Of a DNA stretch of 64,000 bases, positions 54,777-62,068 are shown piece after piece; within the stretch, counting starts at the first letter, position 1, and every line of letters begins with the position of its first letter. The position numbers and the translations under genes were made by a program. This stretch comes from Limnohabitans sp. 2KL-17. GTDB taxonomy: Bacteria > Pseudomonadota > Gammaproteobacteria > Burkholderiales > Burkholderiaceae_C. The notes under the pieces are model-generated. The model was not told where the DNA came from. It did not search any database and saw only the letters and a list, made by a program, of their open reading frames with translations. The stretch is taken from positions 1-64,000 of the forward strand of contig NZ_NESK01000008.1 of the NCBI RefSeq assembly GCF_003063415.1. The letters run 5' to 3'.

Positions 54777-54780
<4 letters not shown>

Positions 54781-55652
54781 TTTTTGGGCGCGTTCTTGGG
54801 TTTGCGTTCAGGTGTTGTTGGCAGTTGGGCGGGCATGGATTGGCCGGGCGGCAAAAAGTTACTGCCCGTCACCACTTTCTGCCCGGTGCGTTTTTCCAGG
54901 TCGTCTTTGGCGCGTTTGGCCACTCGGCCACCTTCTTTGCCGGCTTTGGCGTTTTGTTTCAGGCCTTGGGCTTCTTCGGTTTCAGCAATCTGGCGGGTGG
55001 ACAGTTCCGCCAATGCGGTAAAAATGAGCTCCGCCTCGCTCATGTGGTCACGCAGGTTCTGTGTTTTCAATGACTTGAGCGACTTGTGTGCCTGCACGCT
55101 CAGGCCTGTCCATTCTTGATGAATGATGTTGGTCAGCAGCGCGAATTCATCCGCCTTTTCCACACCGCTTTCTTTCCAGTAATCGGTCAACTTGTTACGG
55201 GTTTCTTGCCCCGTCATGCGCTGCTGAATCCACTTGGTGCTGCGTCCCAATTTTTGCCAGTTTTCACGGGCGCGGTCCAGGCTTTGCGCGGGGTCTGCAA
55301 TTTCTTGCATCCGTTCATGGCCAACCTTGGCCAGCCAGCGCTTGAACGGTTCGGCCTTGGGCGAGGGGATGGACTGGATCAGGCGCAAGAGTGTGGGCAC
55401 ATCGGCGGCCAGGGTTTTGCGCATGACCCCCGACTCACTGGGCATCGCTACCTGGGGACAGTTTGTCCCCAGGTAGCTGCCCAACGCTGCATCGCGCTTT
55501 CGCAGTTTTTTCAAGTAGTCGGTGGGGTTGATGCTGTCTGTCAGCACCTGCACCACATCCACCACCGAGAAATACCACTTCTCCTGCGCGGCGTCCCAAT
55601 GCGAGCGCACACGGGTGGACTCAAACAGTTTGACAGGTTGGGATGTGGTCAT
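54777..55652 (-). CDS. BRO-N / DinD-like protein
   Basis: 291 residues. The N-terminal [43 protein letters not shown] is a BRO-N domain, found in phage antirepressors and in the LexA-regulated E. coli DinD. A long charged helical middle follows, and the C-terminus is basic and Pro/Lys-rich ([26 protein letters not shown]-type end). Function is uncertain; DinD modulates RecA. It is coupled to parC by an ATGA overlap and follows the restriction-modification gene by 54 bp. Confidence 0.8.
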
Positions 55653-55706
55653 GGCTTGGCAAAGGCGTGTGGATGCGTGCTCAAAGAGCGGTATTGAGGC
55701 TGCTGC

Positions 55707-58700
55707 TCATAAATACTTTTGCAAAATTGCCTGCTTTTGCGCGGGAGCAGCAGCAATGGTGGCTTGGGCTGCGGTGATGGTTTGCTCGATTGCCCTGATT
55801 TGCGAGGCAATTTTTTGCTGCACAGCAATAGGAGGAACTGAGACCATCAAATCCTCCAAACGTTTAACAGACAGTCCCGGTTGGGCAAGCCCAGTTGCAT
55901 ACTGATTAAGATTCAACTCCATGAGTTTGTGATACAGCCAAAAGGCATCTACTTGGGCAAATGCATTTACAACAACAGCATGTTCTGTTGCATGAAACTT
56001 GCCATGTACCAAACATACATTTCCGCAAAGTGCTCCCTGCCTGCCAATTAAAGGATAGGTTCCTTCGTGTGTGAATGTTTTTGTGTAACCACGAAGACCA
56101 TTTCCACCGTAGCATGGGTAAAGATCAGTTGCTGGCACGTCCTTAATATCTGACGCAGAAACAAATTTACCCGCATTCATTTCACAAATAGCACCCAATT
56201 TTTTATTGATTACAGTTCCATTTGAATAATGCGAAATCGCATCGCCGATTTCATTTTTTGCTTGTTCAATTTTTGCCTTAGCCGCATTTACCAACTGATC
56301 GATAGCCTCGCATTCGGCAACGATTTTTTGCTGGATATTAAAAGGTGGGAGCCCAAAAGTGAGGTCTTTTAAACGTTCAACTGATAAACCTGGCTGCGCC
56401 ACACCCGTCGCGTACTGATTCAAGTCAAGCGAAATGAGTTTGTAGTGAAGCCATTTTTTATGGGCATTTGGGTTTGCAATTACAACTACCGCATGCTCTG
56501 TTGCATGAAATTTTCCTTTTGCAAAAAATACGTTTCCGCAAAGTGCGCCTTGACGACCGATCAAGGAGTATTCGCCTTCATGCGTGAAGGACTCAACATA
56601 GCCACGCAGGCCATTACCGCCATAGCAAGGATGAGTGCCTTCAAAAAATTCGGGTTTTATTGCATTGGCAGAAACAAATTTACCAGCCCGTAGCTCACTA
56701 ATATCGGCTAAGCGGACTAGTGGCCATTGACTCGCTACTGTCAGCGATCTCTTGACAGATAACGACAGAACAGCATCAAATTCCACCCGCCCAAACTCCA
56801 ACAAGTCAACTAGCGGGGCCTGCGTCACGTATCCTTGCAATTCACTCGGGATTTGCAGCACCTCACCAGAAAACGCCTGCCGAATGATATGGCTGATTTT
56901 GCTGGGGTTGTTACGGTCTTTGGGGTCAAACAAAGGCGTGGCAATGTCACGCACAGACTCACCATCGAGGTAGCGTATGCCTTCTTTACCTTTTCCCCCG
57001 GTCCATTCGTAACCCAAAAACTGCTGCTTATACTTGTTGTCGCTAGGGCCTTTTATCAAGAGCACGGGTGTTGGGTTGTTGGCGGCCAAGAGGTAATAAA
57101 ACAACTTGTTTTGCTCGCGCTCACGGCAAAACTCCGTGAAGCGCTGAGTCAGTTCTATTTGCTGACTCTCAGGGCTTTGCTTTTGAAAATCTTTGCTGGT
57201 GATACGTTTTTTAGTGTCGGTCGCTTCGTCAAAAGCACGGCGATAGTCTTTGAACATGTCCGTTGCCAGCAACTCGGCGCTGGGATGGCCTTGCAACAAG
57301 CTGGTGTAGTGGTCAAAAGCGACACCAATATGAGCACAGTACTGGCGCACGGTGTCCAGGTCTTGGTATTCACCGCCGCCAGTTTGGGCTTCGGTGGCCC
57401 AGTCTTCAAAGTAATCCTGCACCCGATTAGTCAGATGCTCTGCCGCTTCGGGGCGCAGGCTTTTGCGGCGCATAAAAAGCACAACGGTCTTGGTCTCCGT
57501 CTTGCCAAAGGTGCTGCCACCCAGTTCGGTGATGGCCACAAAGTCAAAATATTTAAGCAAAATTTGCCGAGTGGCCACATGCATGCCATCTTTGTTGCTG
57601 GGAATGGAATTGGGCACGATAACGCCCATGACGGCACCTGGCTTTAAAAGTTGCTGCGCCCGTTCTAAAAAAAAGCACTCGACATTTTTGTTGCCTAGGT
57701 CGTTGGCATTGGCCAACAAGGTGTAACGCTCGCGCTGGTCTTCGGGCACGGTTTGCAAAAAGTCTTCCACTGCAAACGGGGGGTTGGCCACCAAAATATC
57801 GTGGCCTGCTTCGGTGATGTCGGGGTGACGTACTAAAGCATCTGCATCCAGGATTTGGATGTCGTTGAAACCGTACATAAAAGCCGACACCTTGGCCACT
57901 TTGGCCAAGCGGTCTTCTTTTTCAATGCCATAGATTCCCGCATACCATTTGCTGGTGTTGGCCTGTTGCTTGTGGGCCTGCAAGAGCGCTGGCAATTGGG
58001 CCGCGTATTCGGTCAAAAAGTGGCCCGAGCCGCAGGCGTAGTCAATGACTTTGAGCGGTTCACTGGTGTTGGCGATGAGTTGCTCCAACGGCAAACTGCT
58101 CACAATGAATTTGCAAATGGGCACAGGGGTGAAAAACTGGCCTTCGCTTTGCTTGATGCCGTTGTCCAGAAAGTACTCAAACATGTCTCCCAAAAATTGG
58201 TTTTGGCTGCTGCCAGTGAGGCGGTAACCCTGCCACATTTGGATGATTTCAATCAGGATTTTGGCGTTGCGGTCAAAGTAGGTTTGGTTAAAAACTTTGA
58301 TGAATTCAAAATCCATGCCTTTGAAAAATTTAAGCTCTCGGAACAGCCGCTTGATTTCGTCTTTGACGGCGTTGCGTTTTTTCTTAACTGGCCAAAAGGC
58401 TTGATCAATGTCGGCATTGCTGACATACACGATGTCTTGGTCCAAGAAGCGTTGCATGCCGGTTTTGTAAAGGGCTTGCAGACGGTCGACCAAGTCGTAG
58501 TAGTTGTCGTAGGCAATGCCCTTCCAGTAAAACCGCAGGTCGTCAGGGTGCTCCATTTCGTCCACGATTTTGCAGACGAAGAGATTGACCAGCACCTCAA
58601 AGGCGTTTTCACGGCGCGACACATTGTGTTTGCGCAAGATGGTGCGAAAGTGGTGGTATTTGCCTTTGATGTCGTTGGCATCCAGTGGCCTTGTATCGTC

Positions 58701-59423
58701 AGCAAAGGTGTATTTGCTTTTGCCAATTTGGTAAGGCTGTATGTTGTCTTCAAAAATACCGACTTCGGTGAACTCTTGGCGGTACGTGTCTTTCCAGGCT
58801 TTGAAACGTTCCTTGGCGTTGGTGGCCTCTTTGAACGATTGCGCCTTGGGCTGGTCAAGCAAAATTTGCGGGTTGTCTTTGACGCTGATGATGCGTTGAC
58901 TGGTTTTGACTTGGCCCGCTTTGCCATCAAGCTCGCTGGCATAAAGGCAAATAAACTGTGTCGCCTTTTCTTGCTCGACATAGCTGATGAGTTGAGCACC
59001 ATCTTCAAGCGTGTCTTTCCAAGCTTTTTCAAATTCACGCCCAGCGGTTTTGCATTCAATGATCAGCAGGGCTGCGCCCTGCTGGTCCCGCACCAAAATG
59101 TCTGCCCGTCCGCTTTTGCCGCCATGCCCCAGTTTCCACTCGGGCTCTAACTCAATGTGCTGGGGCTTGTAGCCTTTTTCTAACAGCCGATGGACGCATT
59201 CCAAAACCACTGCGTTTTCAGACGACGAGAAGTTGCAGGTGTCATCACGGTTGACCTTGAAACCATGCAGTTTCGGGTAATCAATGCTTAGCTTGCTGAA
59301 ATCAATGCGGATGACCTCACCGTTTTCACCATAGATTTTGTGCAAAACGTCACTGACTTCTTGGGGGTCTGCCGAAAAACCCAAATGCAAGGCCAAGGCG
59401 CGGAAATTTTGTGCATCGATCAT
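55707..59423 (-). CDS. Single-chain restriction-modification enzyme (nuclease, N6-methylase, two recognition domains)
   Basis: About 1238 residues from ATG at 59423. Residues 90-130 hold a PD-(D/E)XK nuclease motif (RADILVRD, D108, then IECK, E123-C-K125). Methylase motifs follow: QFFTP (429), motif I DYACGSGHF (461-469) and motif IV NPPF (547-550), an N6-adenine type. Residues about 900-1030 and 1070-1190 are type I S-subunit-like recognition domains, very similar to each other (each has PCYGGNGLRGY, LIGRQGALCGNV, GKFHATEHAVVV). This is the layout of type IIG/IIB-like enzymes such as BcgI-type fusions. The AT-richer codons than the flanking parE and parC support horizontal arrival. The start is the ATG that gives MIDAQNFRALALHLGF; the long upstream frame overlaps the next gene. 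Confidence 0.92.
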   Translation of the reverse strand: MIDAQNFRALALHLGFSADPQEVSDVLHKIYGENGEVIRIDFSKLSIDYPKLHGFKVNRDDTCNFSSSENAVVLECVHRLLEKGYKPQHIELEPEWKLGHGGKSGRADILVRDQQGAALLIIECKTAGREFEKAWKDTLEDGAQLISYVEQEKATQFICLYASELDGKAGQVKTSQRIISVKDNPQILLDQPKAQSFKEATNAKERFKAWKDTYRQEFTEVGIFEDNIQPYQIGKSKYTFADDTRPLDANDIKGKYHHFRTILRKHNVSRRENAFEVLVNLFVCKIVDEMEHPDDLRFYWKGIAYDNYYDLVDRLQALYKTGMQRFLDQDIVYVSNADIDQAFWPVKKKRNAVKDEIKRLFRELKFFKGMDFEFIKVFNQTYFDRNAKILIEIIQMWQGYRLTGSSQNQFLGDMFEYFLDNGIKQSEGQFFTPVPICKFIVSSLPLEQLIANTSEPLKVIDYACGSGHFLTEYAAQLPALLQAHKQQANTSKWYAGIYGIEKEDRLAKVAKVSAFMYGFNDIQILDADALVRHPDITEAGHDILVANPPFAVEDFLQTVPEDQRERYTLLANANDLGNKNVECFFLERAQQLLKPGAVMGVIVPNSIPSNKDGMHVATRQILLKYFDFVAITELGGSTFGKTETKTVVLFMRRKSLRPEAAEHLTNRVQDYFEDWATEAQTGGGEYQDLDTVRQYCAHIGVAFDHYTSLLQGHPSAELLATDMFKDYRRAFDEATDTKKRITSKDFQKQSPESQQIELTQRFTEFCREREQNKLFYYLLAANNPTPVLLIKGPSDNKYKQQFLGYEWTGGKGKEGIRYLDGESVRDIATPLFDPKDRNNPSKISHIIRQAFSGEVLQIPSELQGYVTQAPLVDLLEFGRVEFDAVLSLSVKRSLTVASQWPLVRLADISELRAGKFVSANAIKPEFFEGTHPCYGGNGLRGYVESFTHEGEYSLIGRQGALCGNVFFAKGKFHATEHAVVVIANPNAHKKWLHYKLISLDLNQYATGVAQPGLSVERLKDLTFGLPPFNIQQKIVAECEAIDQLVNAAKAKIEQAKNEIGDAISHYSNGTVINKKLGAICEMNAGKFVSASDIKDVPATDLYPCYGGNGLRGYTKTFTHEGTYPLIGRQGALCGNVCLVHGKFHATEHAVVVNAFAQVDAFWLYHKLMELNLNQYATGLAQPGLSVKRLEDLMVSVPPIAVQQKIASQIRAIEQTITAAQATIAAAPAQKQAILQKYL
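55850..56720 (-). repeat. Duplicated target-recognition-domain coding regions
   Basis: The DNA for recognition domain 1 (about 56340-56720) and domain 2 (about 55850-56210) is a diverged direct duplication; blocks such as those coding PCYGGNGLRGY and LIGRQGALCGNV align between the two copies. Such pairs can recombine, and the similarity implies similar half-sites. Confidence 0.75.
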
Positions 59424-59466
59424 GTGGTTTTTCGTGTTGACGGTGCGTCTGCCTGAGTGTGCGGAT

Positions 59467-60060
59467 TCATTTGGCCCGGCGCAATTTGGGTTGCAACTTG
59501 ACCACCGCTTTTTGCAATGCGTCGAAGTCCAGCCAACCCGGTTCGTGTTCACCAAACATTTGCAAGGCCATGTCACGTTCGTGGTGTGATTTGTCGTACC
59601 ACACGCTGGTCCAGTATTCGGCACCGGGTGGGCCGCCGCAGTCTTCAGGCGGGCAGCCTTGCTGGGCTTTGAGCAAGTGCGGCAAAGGAAGTTCAGTCTC
59701 CACCACCGCTTTGAGCGTGATGACATGCTCCCAATCGTCGCCAAAGTCATATAAATAAAGCAACTTGTCTTTGGGTACGGCCATCACATCTTGAAGCTTA
59801 AAGCGCGCTTCGTTATGAGCCGGTTCACCCCAATTGACCGCGTTGGGTTTTTCAAAGCGGCGGCTGGCTGGCACACGGTAATAGCGCTCGTTTTTAAGGG
59901 GCACCGCAAAACCGTGCATGTGCTCATCTTCCCAACCCATCGCAGCTTGAATCAGCTTGTGCAACTTTGGCAAGGACGTGGCCGGATCGACCAATACATC
60001 GCGGTAGATAGCGGGTTTGAAATCGCGCAATTCAATGCGCAACTGGAAAGCGGTAGTCAT
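59467..60060 (-). CDS. Plasmid pRiA4b ORF-3-like protein
   Basis: 197 residues from ATG at 60060. AFQLRIELRDFKPAIYRDVLVDPATSLPKLHKLIQAAMGWEDEHMHGF and LLYLYDFGDDWEHVITLKAVV match PF07929 (pRiA4b ORF-3), found on plasmids and mobile islands. Function unknown. It lies 43 bp upstream of the restriction-modification gene and 25 bp downstream of parE on the same strand. Confidence 0.9.
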   Translation of the reverse strand: MTTAFQLRIELRDFKPAIYRDVLVDPATSLPKLHKLIQAAMGWEDEHMHGFAVPLKNERYYRVPASRRFEKPNAVNWGEPAHNEARFKLQDVMAVPKDKLLYLYDFGDDWEHVITLKAVVETELPLPHLLKAQQGCPPEDCGGPPGAEYWTSVWYDKSHHERDMALQMFGEHEPGWLDFDALQKAVVKLQPKLRRAK

Positions 60061-60085
60061 GGTCTGTTCGTGTTTGCAGTCACCA

Positions 60086-62068
60086 TCACACGTCGATTTC
60101 AATCGAGTCACCGTGCAATTCCATCAGCTCGCGGCGCGCTGCAGCTTCGCCTTTGCCCATGAGCTGGGTCATCAGGTTTTCAGTGCCGGCGTTGTCCAGC
60201 GGGCCCAACTCGATGGGCAGCAGGCGACGGGTGTCGGGGTTCAGCGTGGTGTCCCAAAGTTGCTCGGCGCTCATCTCGCCCAAACCCTTGAAGCGGCTGA
60301 TGCTCCAACCGCCTTCTTTCACACCGTCTTTGCGCAATTTGTCGAGGATGGCGGTCAGCTCACCGTCGTCCAGCGCGTAGGCTTTGGAGGCGGGCTTTTT
60401 GCCGCGCGCAGGCGCATCGACCCTGAACAGCGGGGGCCTGGCCACGTACAGGTGCCCAGCTTCAATCAGCTTGGGGAAATGCCGGAAGAACAGCGTCAGC
60501 AGCAGCACCTGAATGTGCGAGCCGTCCACGTCCGCATCCGACAAGATGCACACCTTGCCGTAGCGCAGGTTGCTCATGTCAGGCGTGTCGTTGGGGCCAT
60601 GTGGGTCCACGCCGATGGCCACCGAAATGTCGTGGATTTCGTTGTTGGCAAACAAGCGGTCGCGGTCCACTTCCCAGGTATTGAGTACTTTGCCGCGCAG
60701 GGGCAAGACCGCTTGGCATTCCTTGTTGCGGCCCATCTTGGCGCTGCCGCCGGCCGAGTCGCCCTCCACCAGAAACACCTCGTTGTGCAGGATGTCCTTG
60801 CTTTCGCAGTCGGTCAGCTTGCCGGGCAGCACAGCCACACCGGAGCTCTTGCGCTTTTCGACTTTTTGGCCTGCTTTTTGGCGTGTTTGCGCAGCCTTGA
60901 TGGCCAACTCGGCCAATTTTTTGCCGTAGTCCACATGTTCGTTCAGCCAGAGTTCGAGCGTGGGGCGCACAAAGCTGGAGACCAGACGCACCGCGTCACG
61001 TGAATTCAGGCGTTCCTTGATCTGGCCTTGAAACTGCGGGTCGAGCACCTTGGCGCTCAGCACAAAGCTGGCACGGGCAAACACGTCTTCCGGCATGAGC
61101 TTGACGCCTTTGGGCAGCAAACCGTGCAGCTCAATGAAACTCTTGACGGCGGTGAACAAGCCATCGCGCAACCCGCTGTCGTGGGTGCCGCCTGCACTGG
61201 TGGGAATCAGGTTGACATAGCTCTCACGCACAGGGGAGCCGTCTTCGGTAAAGGCCACGGCCCAGCTGGCGCCCTCGCCCTCGGCAAAGCTCTCGTGGTT
61301 GGCGTCGGCAAAACCTTCGCCTTCAAACAAGGGAATCACGGGCTCGCCGTTCAGCGTTTGCATCAAATAGTCGCGCAAACCGGCTTTGTATTGCCATTGC
61401 TGGGTTTCTTTGGTTTTCTCGTTCACCAAAGTCACCGTCACGCCCGGCATGAGCACGGCCTTGCTGCGCAGCAGGTGCGTCAACTCGTTCATGGGCAAGG
61501 CGCTGGATTCGAAATACTTGGGGTCGGGCCAGGCCCGCACAGTGGTGCCCTGTTTGCGGTCGCCCTCGATTGCGGCGCGGGCCACCAGGGGCTCAGTCAC
61601 GTCGCCTCCCGAGAACACCAGACGGGCTACTTTGCCCTCGCGGTAGCTGGTGGCTTCCAGCCGCGTGGACAACGCATTGGTCACGCTCACGCCCACGCCA
61701 TGCAAACCGCCAGAGAAGCTGTAGGCGCCACCCTTGCCCTTGTCGAACTTGCCGCCCGCATGCAAGCGGGTAAAGACCAACTCAATCACAGGGGCATTTT
61801 CTTCAGGGTGCAGGCCAAAGGGAATGCCCCGGCCATCGTCTTCGATGCTGACCGATCCGTCAGCGTGCAGGATCACTTTGATCTTTTTGCCGTGACCCGC
61901 AAGCGCCTCGTCGGCGGCGTTGTCCAGCACCTCCTGAATGACGTGCAGCGGGTTGTCGGTTCGGGTGTACATGCCCGGACGTTGCTTGACAGGCTCCAGG
62001 CCTTTCAGGACGCGGATGGAGCCTTCGGAGTACTCATTGGAAGTTTTGACGGTAGATTGGGTGGCCAT
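60086..62068 (-). CDS. parE: DNA topoisomerase IV subunit B
   Basis: 660 residues from ATG at 62068, where MATQSTVKTS gives a normal start. The GHKL ATPase elements are EVLDNAADEALAGHGKK, DDGRGIPFG and GLHGVGVSVTNALS; the toprim domain has LVEGDSAGGSAKMGRN and DADVDGSHIQVLLLTLFFRH. With ParC it resolves linked chromosomes. In-frame sequence upstream runs on but overlaps the MFS promoter region. Confidence 0.96.
   Translation of the reverse strand: MATQSTVKTSNEYSEGSIRVLKGLEPVKQRPGMYTRTDNPLHVIQEVLDNAADEALAGHGKKIKVILHADGSVSIEDDGRGIPFGLHPEENAPVIELVFTRLHAGGKFDKGKGGAYSFSGGLHGVGVSVTNALSTRLEATSYREGKVARLVFSGGDVTEPLVARAAIEGDRKQGTTVRAWPDPKYFESSALPMNELTHLLRSKAVLMPGVTVTLVNEKTKETQQWQYKAGLRDYLMQTLNGEPVIPLFEGEGFADANHESFAEGEGASWAVAFTEDGSPVRESYVNLIPTSAGGTHDSGLRDGLFTAVKSFIELHGLLPKGVKLMPEDVFARASFVLSAKVLDPQFQGQIKERLNSRDAVRLVSSFVRPTLELWLNEHVDYGKKLAELAIKAAQTRQKAGQKVEKRKSSGVAVLPGKLTDCESKDILHNEVFLVEGDSAGGSAKMGRNKECQAVLPLRGKVLNTWEVDRDRLFANNEIHDISVAIGVDPHGPNDTPDMSNLRYGKVCILSDADVDGSHIQVLLLTLFFRHFPKLIEAGHLYVARPPLFRVDAPARGKKPASKAYALDDGELTAILDKLRKDGVKEGGWSISRFKGLGEMSAEQLWDTTLNPDTRRLLPIELGPLDNAGTENLMTQLMGKGEAAARRELMELHGDSIEIDV

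What the first reader, a model, noticed from the sequence alone, without database searches (positions are those of the whole stretch)
55850..59423. Single-chain restriction-modification enzyme with two near-identical recognition domains
The two S-like recognition domains share long blocks (PCYGGNGLRGY, LIGRQGALCGNV, GKFHATEHAVVV and others), unlike most type I/IIG S subunits whose two domains read different half-sites. This predicts a recognition site with identical inverted half-sites, i.e. an interrupted palindrome. Nuclease, methylase and both recognition domains lie on one chain, so no separate S subunit is needed.
Basis: partly seen in the sequence, partly recalled or inferred. Interest (0 to 1): 0.7.

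Follow-up and report, generated by a model that had tools for sequence, protein, structure and literature searches.

The report
Restriction enzyme with twin recognition domains
A bacterial gene encodes a one-piece DNA-cutting and DNA-marking enzyme whose two DNA-reading modules are of the same kind, which suggests that it reads a mirror-image DNA site; the enzyme family is known, and this doubled arrangement is uncommon in it.

Summary
The gene at 55707-59423 (-) encodes 1238 residues: PD-(D/E)xK nuclease, gamma-type N6-adenine methylase and a full S module (TRD1-CR1-TRD2-CR2). It matches a PADLOC Type IIG model end to end; BsaXI RM (Type IIB) is the nearest solved structure. 'Near-identical' overstates the repeats: 55% identity overall, 62% over the TRD cores, synonymous sites at chance. 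They are an old, selected pair, not a recent duplication. Of 42 two-TRD chains compared, 38 carry different TRDs (identity 0.17-0.34) and 4 carry two of one type (this one, L014, L054, L067); 5 further chains have one TRD. The predicted S module superposes on Type I S subunits, in which the TRDs are inverted, so two same-type TRDs should read inverted identical half-sites. Published experiments support that inference (BsaXI with duplicated TRD1; H. pylori JHP1422). Half-site, gap and cut positions are unknown, and TRD1 is the more diverged copy, so a near-palindrome is possible. Single-chain Type IIB enzymes and symmetric Type IIB sites are already known. This is a new member of a known kind, useful for the open question how one catalytic head serves two half-sites.

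The parts
55707..59423 (-). single-chain restriction-modification gene, 1238 aa (RMS)
   Evidence: open frame; PADLOC PDLC03624 Type IIG full length, 1303 bits; one match in the own genome
59049..59102 (-). PD-(D/E)xK nuclease residues D108, E123, K125 in the N-terminal HSDR_N_2-like domain
   Evidence: Pfam HSDR_N_2 at its cut-off; GRAD in 32 of 32 and ECK in 33 of 33 of the 36 family rows that cover it; that these are catalytic is recalled motif knowledge
58017..58040 (-). methylase motif I (YACGSGHF, residues 462-469)
   Evidence: Pfam N6_Mtase 1.3e-24; conserved in the family
57774..57785 (-). methylase motif IV NPPF (residues 547-550), gamma-class N6-adenine
   Evidence: NPPF in 34 and NPPY in 1 of the 35 (of 36) family rows that cover it
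56325..56738 (-). TRD1 (residues 896-1033)
   Evidence: Pfam Methylase_S, two stretches in the protein; predicted fold
56214..56324 (-). CR1 spacer helix (residues 1034-1070)
   Evidence: helix 189-229 of the S-module model
55812..56213 (-). TRD2 (residues 1071-1204), same type as TRD1
   Evidence: identity 0.62 to TRD1; type also found as TRD2 of L006, L033, L072
55710..55811 (-). CR2 spacer helix (residues 1205-1238)
   Evidence: helix 360-398 of the S-module model
59467..60111 (-). flanking gene: plasmid pRiA4b ORF-3-like protein
   Evidence: Pfam PRiA4_ORF3 1.8e-44
54777..55652 (-). flanking gene: Bro-N / DinD-like protein (PADLOC candidate PDC-S13)

Best explanation
It is a single-chain Type IIG enzyme with the two-TRD, Type IIB-like build (as in AloI/TstI) that carries two recognition domains of the same type. 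Shown: the domain order, intact motifs, the same-type TRDs, and their rarity among the relatives compared. Predicted from models: the C-terminal part folds as a full Type I-like S module, which would hold TRD1 and TRD2 in opposite orientation on the CR1/CR2 helices. Inferred: each TRD reads the same short half-site, one per strand, so the site is an interrupted palindrome (or nearly so). The methylase marks an adenine in each half-site. [quoted passage not shown] The gene is a defence cassette against phage and foreign DNA, placed between parE and parC.
For: Family: PDLC03624 over residues 1-1238. BsaXI RM is the best PDB match by sequence (8e-33) and by fold (8w0p_A, Z 27.2, rmsd 7.4 over 563 residues; 8w2p_A Z 27.5). 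S module: model pLDDT 84.6; matches across both TRDs are 1ydx (Z 25.8, rmsd 5.9, 335 residues), PacII S (Z 23.0, rmsd 2.9, 325) and EcoR124I S (Z 18.6, rmsd 3.5, 331). Same-type TRDs: 0.62 identity against 0.17-0.34 in 38 of 42 two-TRD chains. Both TRDs kept under long selection: 55% aa identity with third positions at chance. Precedents (passages): BsaXI S with duplicated TRD1 reads AC N5 GT, and a 59%-identical TRD2 homologue keeps the specificity (PMC9159934); identical TRD2/TRD3 of JHP1422 read AAG N5 CTT (PMC3936762); Type IIB enzymes with symmetric sites exist: AlfI, BplI, FalI (PMC1892151 Table 1).
Against: No methylation or cleavage data; the half-site is unknown. TRD1 keeps 63 of 74 residues (0.85) that are invariant in the other four TRDs of its type, while each of those keeps 0.95-0.98 in the same test, so TRD1 may read a variant half-site. 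The tree of this TRD type is unresolved and gives TRD1 a long branch. Not every TRD makes a palindrome work: TRD1 of JHP1422 alone did not modify its palindromic site (passages, PMC3936762), and BsaXI 2xTRD1 was only partly active with variable cuts. The full-chain model has pTM 0.59 and a monomer model cannot show the assembly. Cleavage on both sides was not tested.
Confidence: 0.75

Rival explanations
1. The two TRDs are of one type but have drifted to read related, non-identical half-sites, so that the site is only a near-palindrome.
For: TRD1 departs at 11 of 74 type-invariant positions, three of them adjacent (T-K-T to V-E-S just after the GGNGLRGY block); 0.62 identity leaves room for a changed contact.
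Against: The blocks GGNGLRGY, LIGRQGALCGN, FHATEHA and AQPGLSV are the same in all five TRDs of the type. A 59%-identical TRD2 homologue kept BsaXI specificity (passages, PMC9159934).
Confidence: 0.17
2. Only one TRD per chain is used, and two chains pair so that the working site is read by two copies of the same TRD, as described for HaeIV; the other TRD is spare or structural.
For: Five relatives have one TRD only (L016, L026, L027, L030, L060), so one TRD per chain may suffice. HaeIV is described as a homodimer using two copies of one specificity domain (passages, PMC4081073). One catalytic head for two TRDs is called a mystery for AloI and CjeI (passages, PMC3874165).
Against: Both TRDs keep their protein sequence while third codon positions are at chance. 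The S-module model is complete, with both TRDs matching Type I S subunits. It too predicts a palindrome and differs mainly in assembly.
Confidence: 0.06
3. A decayed or unexpressed gene, or a repeat made by misassembly.
For: The neighbouring DinD-like gene is broken or fragmentary in several related genomes.
Against: Full open frame with intact motifs; the repeats differ too much at the DNA level to be an assembly artefact; a 97%-identical N-terminus (residues 1-267) lies behind the same pRiA4b gene in another MAG, L038.
Confidence: 0.02

Closest known systems
AloI / PpiI / TstI / CjeI (single-chain Type IIB, R-M-S with two TRDs)
   Same: R-M-TRD-TRD on one chain of about 1250 aa, as described in PMC3874165 and PMC4081073 (passages)
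   Different: Their two TRDs read different half-sites (e.g. AloI GGA and GAAC); here both TRDs are of one type. Their sequences were not at hand, so no direct comparison was made.
HaeIV (single-chain Type IIB, symmetric site GAY N5 RTC)
   Same: One chain; symmetric site (only predicted here)
   Different: Listed with a single TRD, acting as a homodimer (passages, PMC3874165, PMC4081073); here two TRDs are on the chain
BsaXI and its engineered 2xTRD1 form
   Same: Closest solved structure to the RM core; a duplicated TRD gave a palindromic site (passages, PMC9159934)
   Different: S is a separate subunit in BsaXI; the duplication was engineered and only partly active
H. pylori JHP1422 (Type I S with identical TRD2/TRD3)
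   Same: Two same-type TRDs read a palindrome, AAG N5 CTT (passages, PMC3936762)
   Different: Type I S subunit with three TRDs and a separate methylase, not a fused RM enzyme
AlfI, BplI, FalI (Type IIB, symmetric sites)
   Same: Symmetric interrupted sites (PMC1892151 Table 1)
   Different: BplI has two polypeptides; the numbers for AlfI and FalI are given as not known in that table

Membership tests
Type IIG restriction-modification enzyme (PADLOC REase_MTase_IIG) | N-terminal PD-(D/E)xK nuclease fused to gamma-class N6-adenine methylase | tested here: met
   PDLC03624 over residues 1-1238; HSDR_N_2 and N6_Mtase; ECK 33 of 33, NPPF/Y 35 of 35 covering rows
Single-chain (RMS) Type IIB in the wide sense | S module TRD1-CR1-TRD2-CR2 fused at the C-terminus of the RM chain | tested here: met
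Single-chain (RMS) Type IIB in the wide sense | cleavage on both sides of a bipartite site | not testable with these tools
   biochemical property
Single-chain (RMS) Type IIB in the wide sense | sequence homology to AloI, PpiI or TstI | not tested
   I found no record of their sequences in the tools I used; the PNAS 2007 paper is not held
AloI-like in the narrow sense | two TRDs of different type reading different half-sites | tested here: not met
   TRD1-TRD2 identity 0.62 against 0.17-0.34 in 38 of 42 two-TRD chains; usual for, not required of, Type IIB, since AlfI, BplI and FalI sites are symmetric
HaeIV-like (one TRD, homodimer) | one TRD per chain | tested here: not met
   two TRDs on the chain; one-TRD relatives exist: L016, L026, L027, L030, L060
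Type I R-M system | separate HsdM, HsdS and an HsdR with ATP-dependent motor | tested here: not met
   single chain; no motor domain among its 8 Pfam matches at E up to 0.1; flanks are pRiA4b ORF3-like and DinD-like genes

The most novel reading that the evidence does not exclude
Twin-TRD single-chain enzymes are a recurring natural state of this family: 4 of 42 two-TRD chains, in four different TRD types, beside 5 one-TRD chains, made by drawing from one shared pool of exchangeable TRDs. In the twin state a chain is pseudo-symmetric and can dock on its palindrome in either direction, so one catalytic head can serve both half-sites. This would make the unsolved '1 RM : 2 TRD' question of AloI-type enzymes directly testable by comparing twin, mixed and one-TRD chains built on the same core.
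Probability: 0.3. Interest if true: 0.55.

Novelty: new member of a known kind. Interest (0 to 1): 0.38.

Why it matters
The rule that two like TRDs give a palindromic site is known for S subunits. I found no natural single-chain Type IIB enzyme with two same-type TRDs described (paper searches; only listings and some passages were seen, and only open-licence papers are held). If true, it gives a natural set of experiments. A twin-TRD chain should work with either TRD alone, and L034/L038, apparently the same island in a related MAG, carries two other TRDs on a near-identical core. Together these could show how a chain with one nuclease and one methylase handles two half-sites.

Tried and rejected
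Recent in-chain duplication was rejected: fourfold sites are at chance (12 of 38 against 11.2 expected), and TRD2 is as close to TRD2 of L072, L006 and L033 (0.66, 0.65, 0.63) as to its own TRD1 (0.62). TRD1, however, is closest to its own TRD2 (0.62, next 0.57), so an old duplication is not excluded. The tree of this TRD type does not resolve it.

Recent import of the TRD block because of its low GC3 (0.32-0.37 in TRD1-CR1-TRD2, against 0.59-0.65 in the three stretches of residues 1-880 and 0.53 in CR2) was rejected as specific evidence. The control showed the block below the core in 41 of 42 two-TRD chains by rounded values, so it is a family-wide trait.

Naming the half-site led nowhere. 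The same TRD type is the C-terminal TRD of Type I S genes on E. coli, Klebsiella and Comamonas plasmids (L108, L044, L109, L045; 48-60% identity), but the annotation seen there names no specificity. One paper search for a host methylome, using a guessed genus name, showed nothing relevant in the 8 of 475 papers listed. A k-mer avoidance test was considered and not run, as too weak.

Other collections: of 362 plasmid records with a match, 2 cover 80% or more of the query, both Lactobacillus gasseri at 27% identity (40 of 362 listed). Of 22 phage records, none covers 80% and all are under 60% identity. In viral contigs 8 stretches matched a pattern and none was confirmed.

Excess of twins over random pairing of TRD types: 4 observed against 1.07 expected, permutation 0.0175. 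I do not lean on it: it ignores kinship, and L067, only about 33% identical to this protein, has a type found nowhere else in the set. L054 and L067 come from the sample of the order of L014, so three of the four twins are from one order.

Rows dropped before the counts. One search used 29 two-TRD chains of the 36 aligned; L037, L038, L039 (fragments), L040 (own copy) and L041 (matches the TRDs only) were left out before. One search used 51 chains after removing 12 duplicates and the broken or short frames L064, L071, L073, L074. Of the 51, 42 have two TRDs (L010, L022, L062 and L070 run off their stretch and L018 ends early), 5 have one, and 4 are incomplete in the S module (L008, L009, L029, L063). 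The TRD type cut-off (0.45) sits in a thin zone: over all pairs of the 89 TRDs, 11 lie between 0.40 and 0.50.
Full report
What is there. The gene lies at 55707-59423 on the minus strand and encodes 1238 residues. A DNA search of its 3.5-Mb genome gave one match, the gene itself. Pfam finds HSDR_N_2 (at its cut-off), N6_Mtase and two Methylase_S stretches. PADLOC gives a Type IIG restriction enzyme-methyltransferase model over the whole length, 1303 bits. Nuclease and methylase motifs are intact and conserved: of 36 family rows, GRAD is in 32 of the 32, ECK in 33 of the 33, and NPPF/NPPY in 35 of the 35 that cover them.

The repeats. Over the complete repeats 92 of 166 residues are identical (55.4%); over the TRD cores the figure is 0.62. 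Third codon positions agree at only 34%, and the 38 comparable fourfold sites agree no more than expected by chance (12 against 11.2). The pair is therefore old and has been kept alike by selection on protein sequence. 'Near-identical' is too strong, but both are clearly of one TRD type.

How unusual. A scan of genome contigs gave 38 loci encoding relatives. In the first set, 29 chains had two TRDs: L014 0.68, own 0.62, the other 27 at 0.17-0.31. After adding loci from searches of 369 genomes of the class (3 matches, own included) and 301 of the order of L014 (27 matches), 51 different chains were compared. Of these, 42 have two TRDs, 5 have one (L016, L026, L027, L030, L060), and 4 are incomplete in the S module. 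Same-type pairs: L054 0.78, L014 0.68, own 0.62, L067 0.53; the next is 0.34. L014, L054 and L067 come from one order. Across chains, 41 of 1722 TRD1 x TRD2 pairs reach 0.45 and none lies between 0.40 and 0.50. The 89 TRDs fall into 32 types at 0.45, and several types occur in both slots. This TRD type is also TRD2 of L006, L033 and L072 beside TRD1s of other types, and the C-terminal TRD of Type I S genes on Comamonas, E. coli and Klebsiella plasmids. In L034/L038, two contigs of one Comamonadaceae MAG that appear to hold the same island (pRiA4b gene at 90% and DinD-like gene at 85% identity on the flanks), residues 1-267 are 97% identical (L038). Residues 557 to about 880 are 80-100% identical per 40-residue step (L034), while both TRDs are of other types. 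That the two contigs are one gene is inferred; the middle is missing.

Fold. The S module (residues 840-1238), modelled from a 27-row alignment, has mean pLDDT 84.6 and shows much the same strand-helix order twice, each followed by a ~40-residue helix. It superposes over both TRDs on Type I S subunits: 1ydx (Z 25.8, rmsd 5.9, 335 residues), PacII (Z 23.0, rmsd 2.9, 325) and EcoR124I (Z 18.6, rmsd 3.5, 331); and less tightly on BsaXI S (Z 16.9, rmsd 7.1, 317) (Foldseek). Residues 40-1238, modelled from another 27-row alignment (pLDDT 81.4, pTM 0.59), match the BsaXI RM chain best (8w2p_A Z 27.5, 8w0p_A Z 27.2 with rmsd 7.4 over 563 residues; Foldseek). [quoted passage not shown] Two same-type TRDs in that frame should read inverted copies of one half-site.

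Precedent, from passages of papers seen here. [quoted passage not shown] In H. pylori JHP1422 the identical TRD2/TRD3 read AAG N5 CTT, and the authors write that S subunits with two identical TRDs were commonly held to read palindromes; its TRD1 alone, however, did not modify its own palindrome (PMC3936762). A half S in a fused methylase gave ACC N5 GGT (PMC6158711). Symmetric Type IIB sites are known: AlfI, BplI, FalI (PMC1892151) and the single-chain HaeIV, described with one TRD acting as a homodimer (PMC3874165, PMC4081073). Single-chain enzymes with two TRDs are AloI, PpiI, TstI and CjeI. How AloI and CjeI act with one RM for two TRDs is called a mystery (PMC3874165), and TstI was found to be a tetramer (PMC4081073, PMC4027205). 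A 2025 study modelled 16 sequenced Type IIB enzymes; its text does not say whether any single-chain one has like TRDs (section 29 read, PMC11997821).

Mechanism, with status. Shown: domains, motifs, two same-type TRDs, selection on both. Predicted from a model: Type I-like, inverted TRD geometry. Inferred from precedent: identical half-sites, adenine methylation in each, and cleavage on both sides by an oligomer. Not known: the half-site, the gap, the cut distances and the assembly.

Evidence against. TRD1 keeps 63 of the 74 residues invariant in the other four TRDs of the type, while each of those keeps 95-98% in the same leave-one-out test. Three of the changes are adjacent. TRD1 also has the long branch in an unresolved tree. 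So an almost-symmetric site is a live rival.

Context. The gene sits in an island between parE and parC. In the genus sample, 51 of 59 genomes gave a parC match at the limit used, and flanks of the 30 best, own included, were read. By the match ends, parE and parC lie within about 150 bases of each other in 20 of these 30. Others carry a DinD-like gene alone (L076), pRiA4b plus a broken or fragmentary DinD-like gene without the RM gene (L077, L078), or DinD-like pieces (L081, L082, L093); L080, L086 and L100 hold other or unread sequence. The pRiA4b gene is in 3 of 59 genomes including this one. The RM gene was found in no other genome of the genus searched: in 100 relatives, 2 matched at E up to 1e-30, the own genome and, in another family, one S-like gene that matches the TRDs only.

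Verdict. The architecture is a known kind; the twin TRDs are an uncommon state of it, seen 4 times here. The palindrome prediction is well founded but untested.

Noticed in passing
54777-60111: The parE-parC interval is a small variable island in the genus: pRiA4b ORF3-like, RM and DinD-like genes here; DinD-like only, pRiA4b plus a broken DinD-like gene, or nothing in relatives; a different ORF (RhuM-like by eye, recalled) sits before parC in L086. In L002, of another Comamonadaceae MAG, the RM gene abuts parC directly.
   Followed up: partly
55812-56738 and the same region of 41 other two-TRD chains: Third-position GC of the TRD1-CR1-TRD2 block is below that of the RM core in 41 of 42 chains (rounded values), with the largest gaps mostly where the core is GC-rich; one reading is a shared AT-rich pool of TRDs that keeps being imported.
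   Followed up: partly
L016, L026, L027, L030, L060: Relatives with only one TRD on the chain and no S gene among the longest same-strand frames of the next 1.5 kb (shorter where the locus ends); possible HaeIV-like forms within the same family.
   Followed up: partly
L014 (2476-6186), L054, L067: Three further chains with two same-type TRDs, each of a different TRD type.
   Followed up: partly
54777-55652: DinD/Bro-N-like gene next to the RM gene matches PADLOC candidate defence family PDC-S13 (1.4e-119); broken or fragmentary in several relatives.
   Followed up: no
L044 3254-5543: On an E. coli IncY plasmid, a Type I S gene whose C-terminal TRD is of this type is annotated in two pieces with an ISApl1 transposase gene between them.
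   Followed up: no
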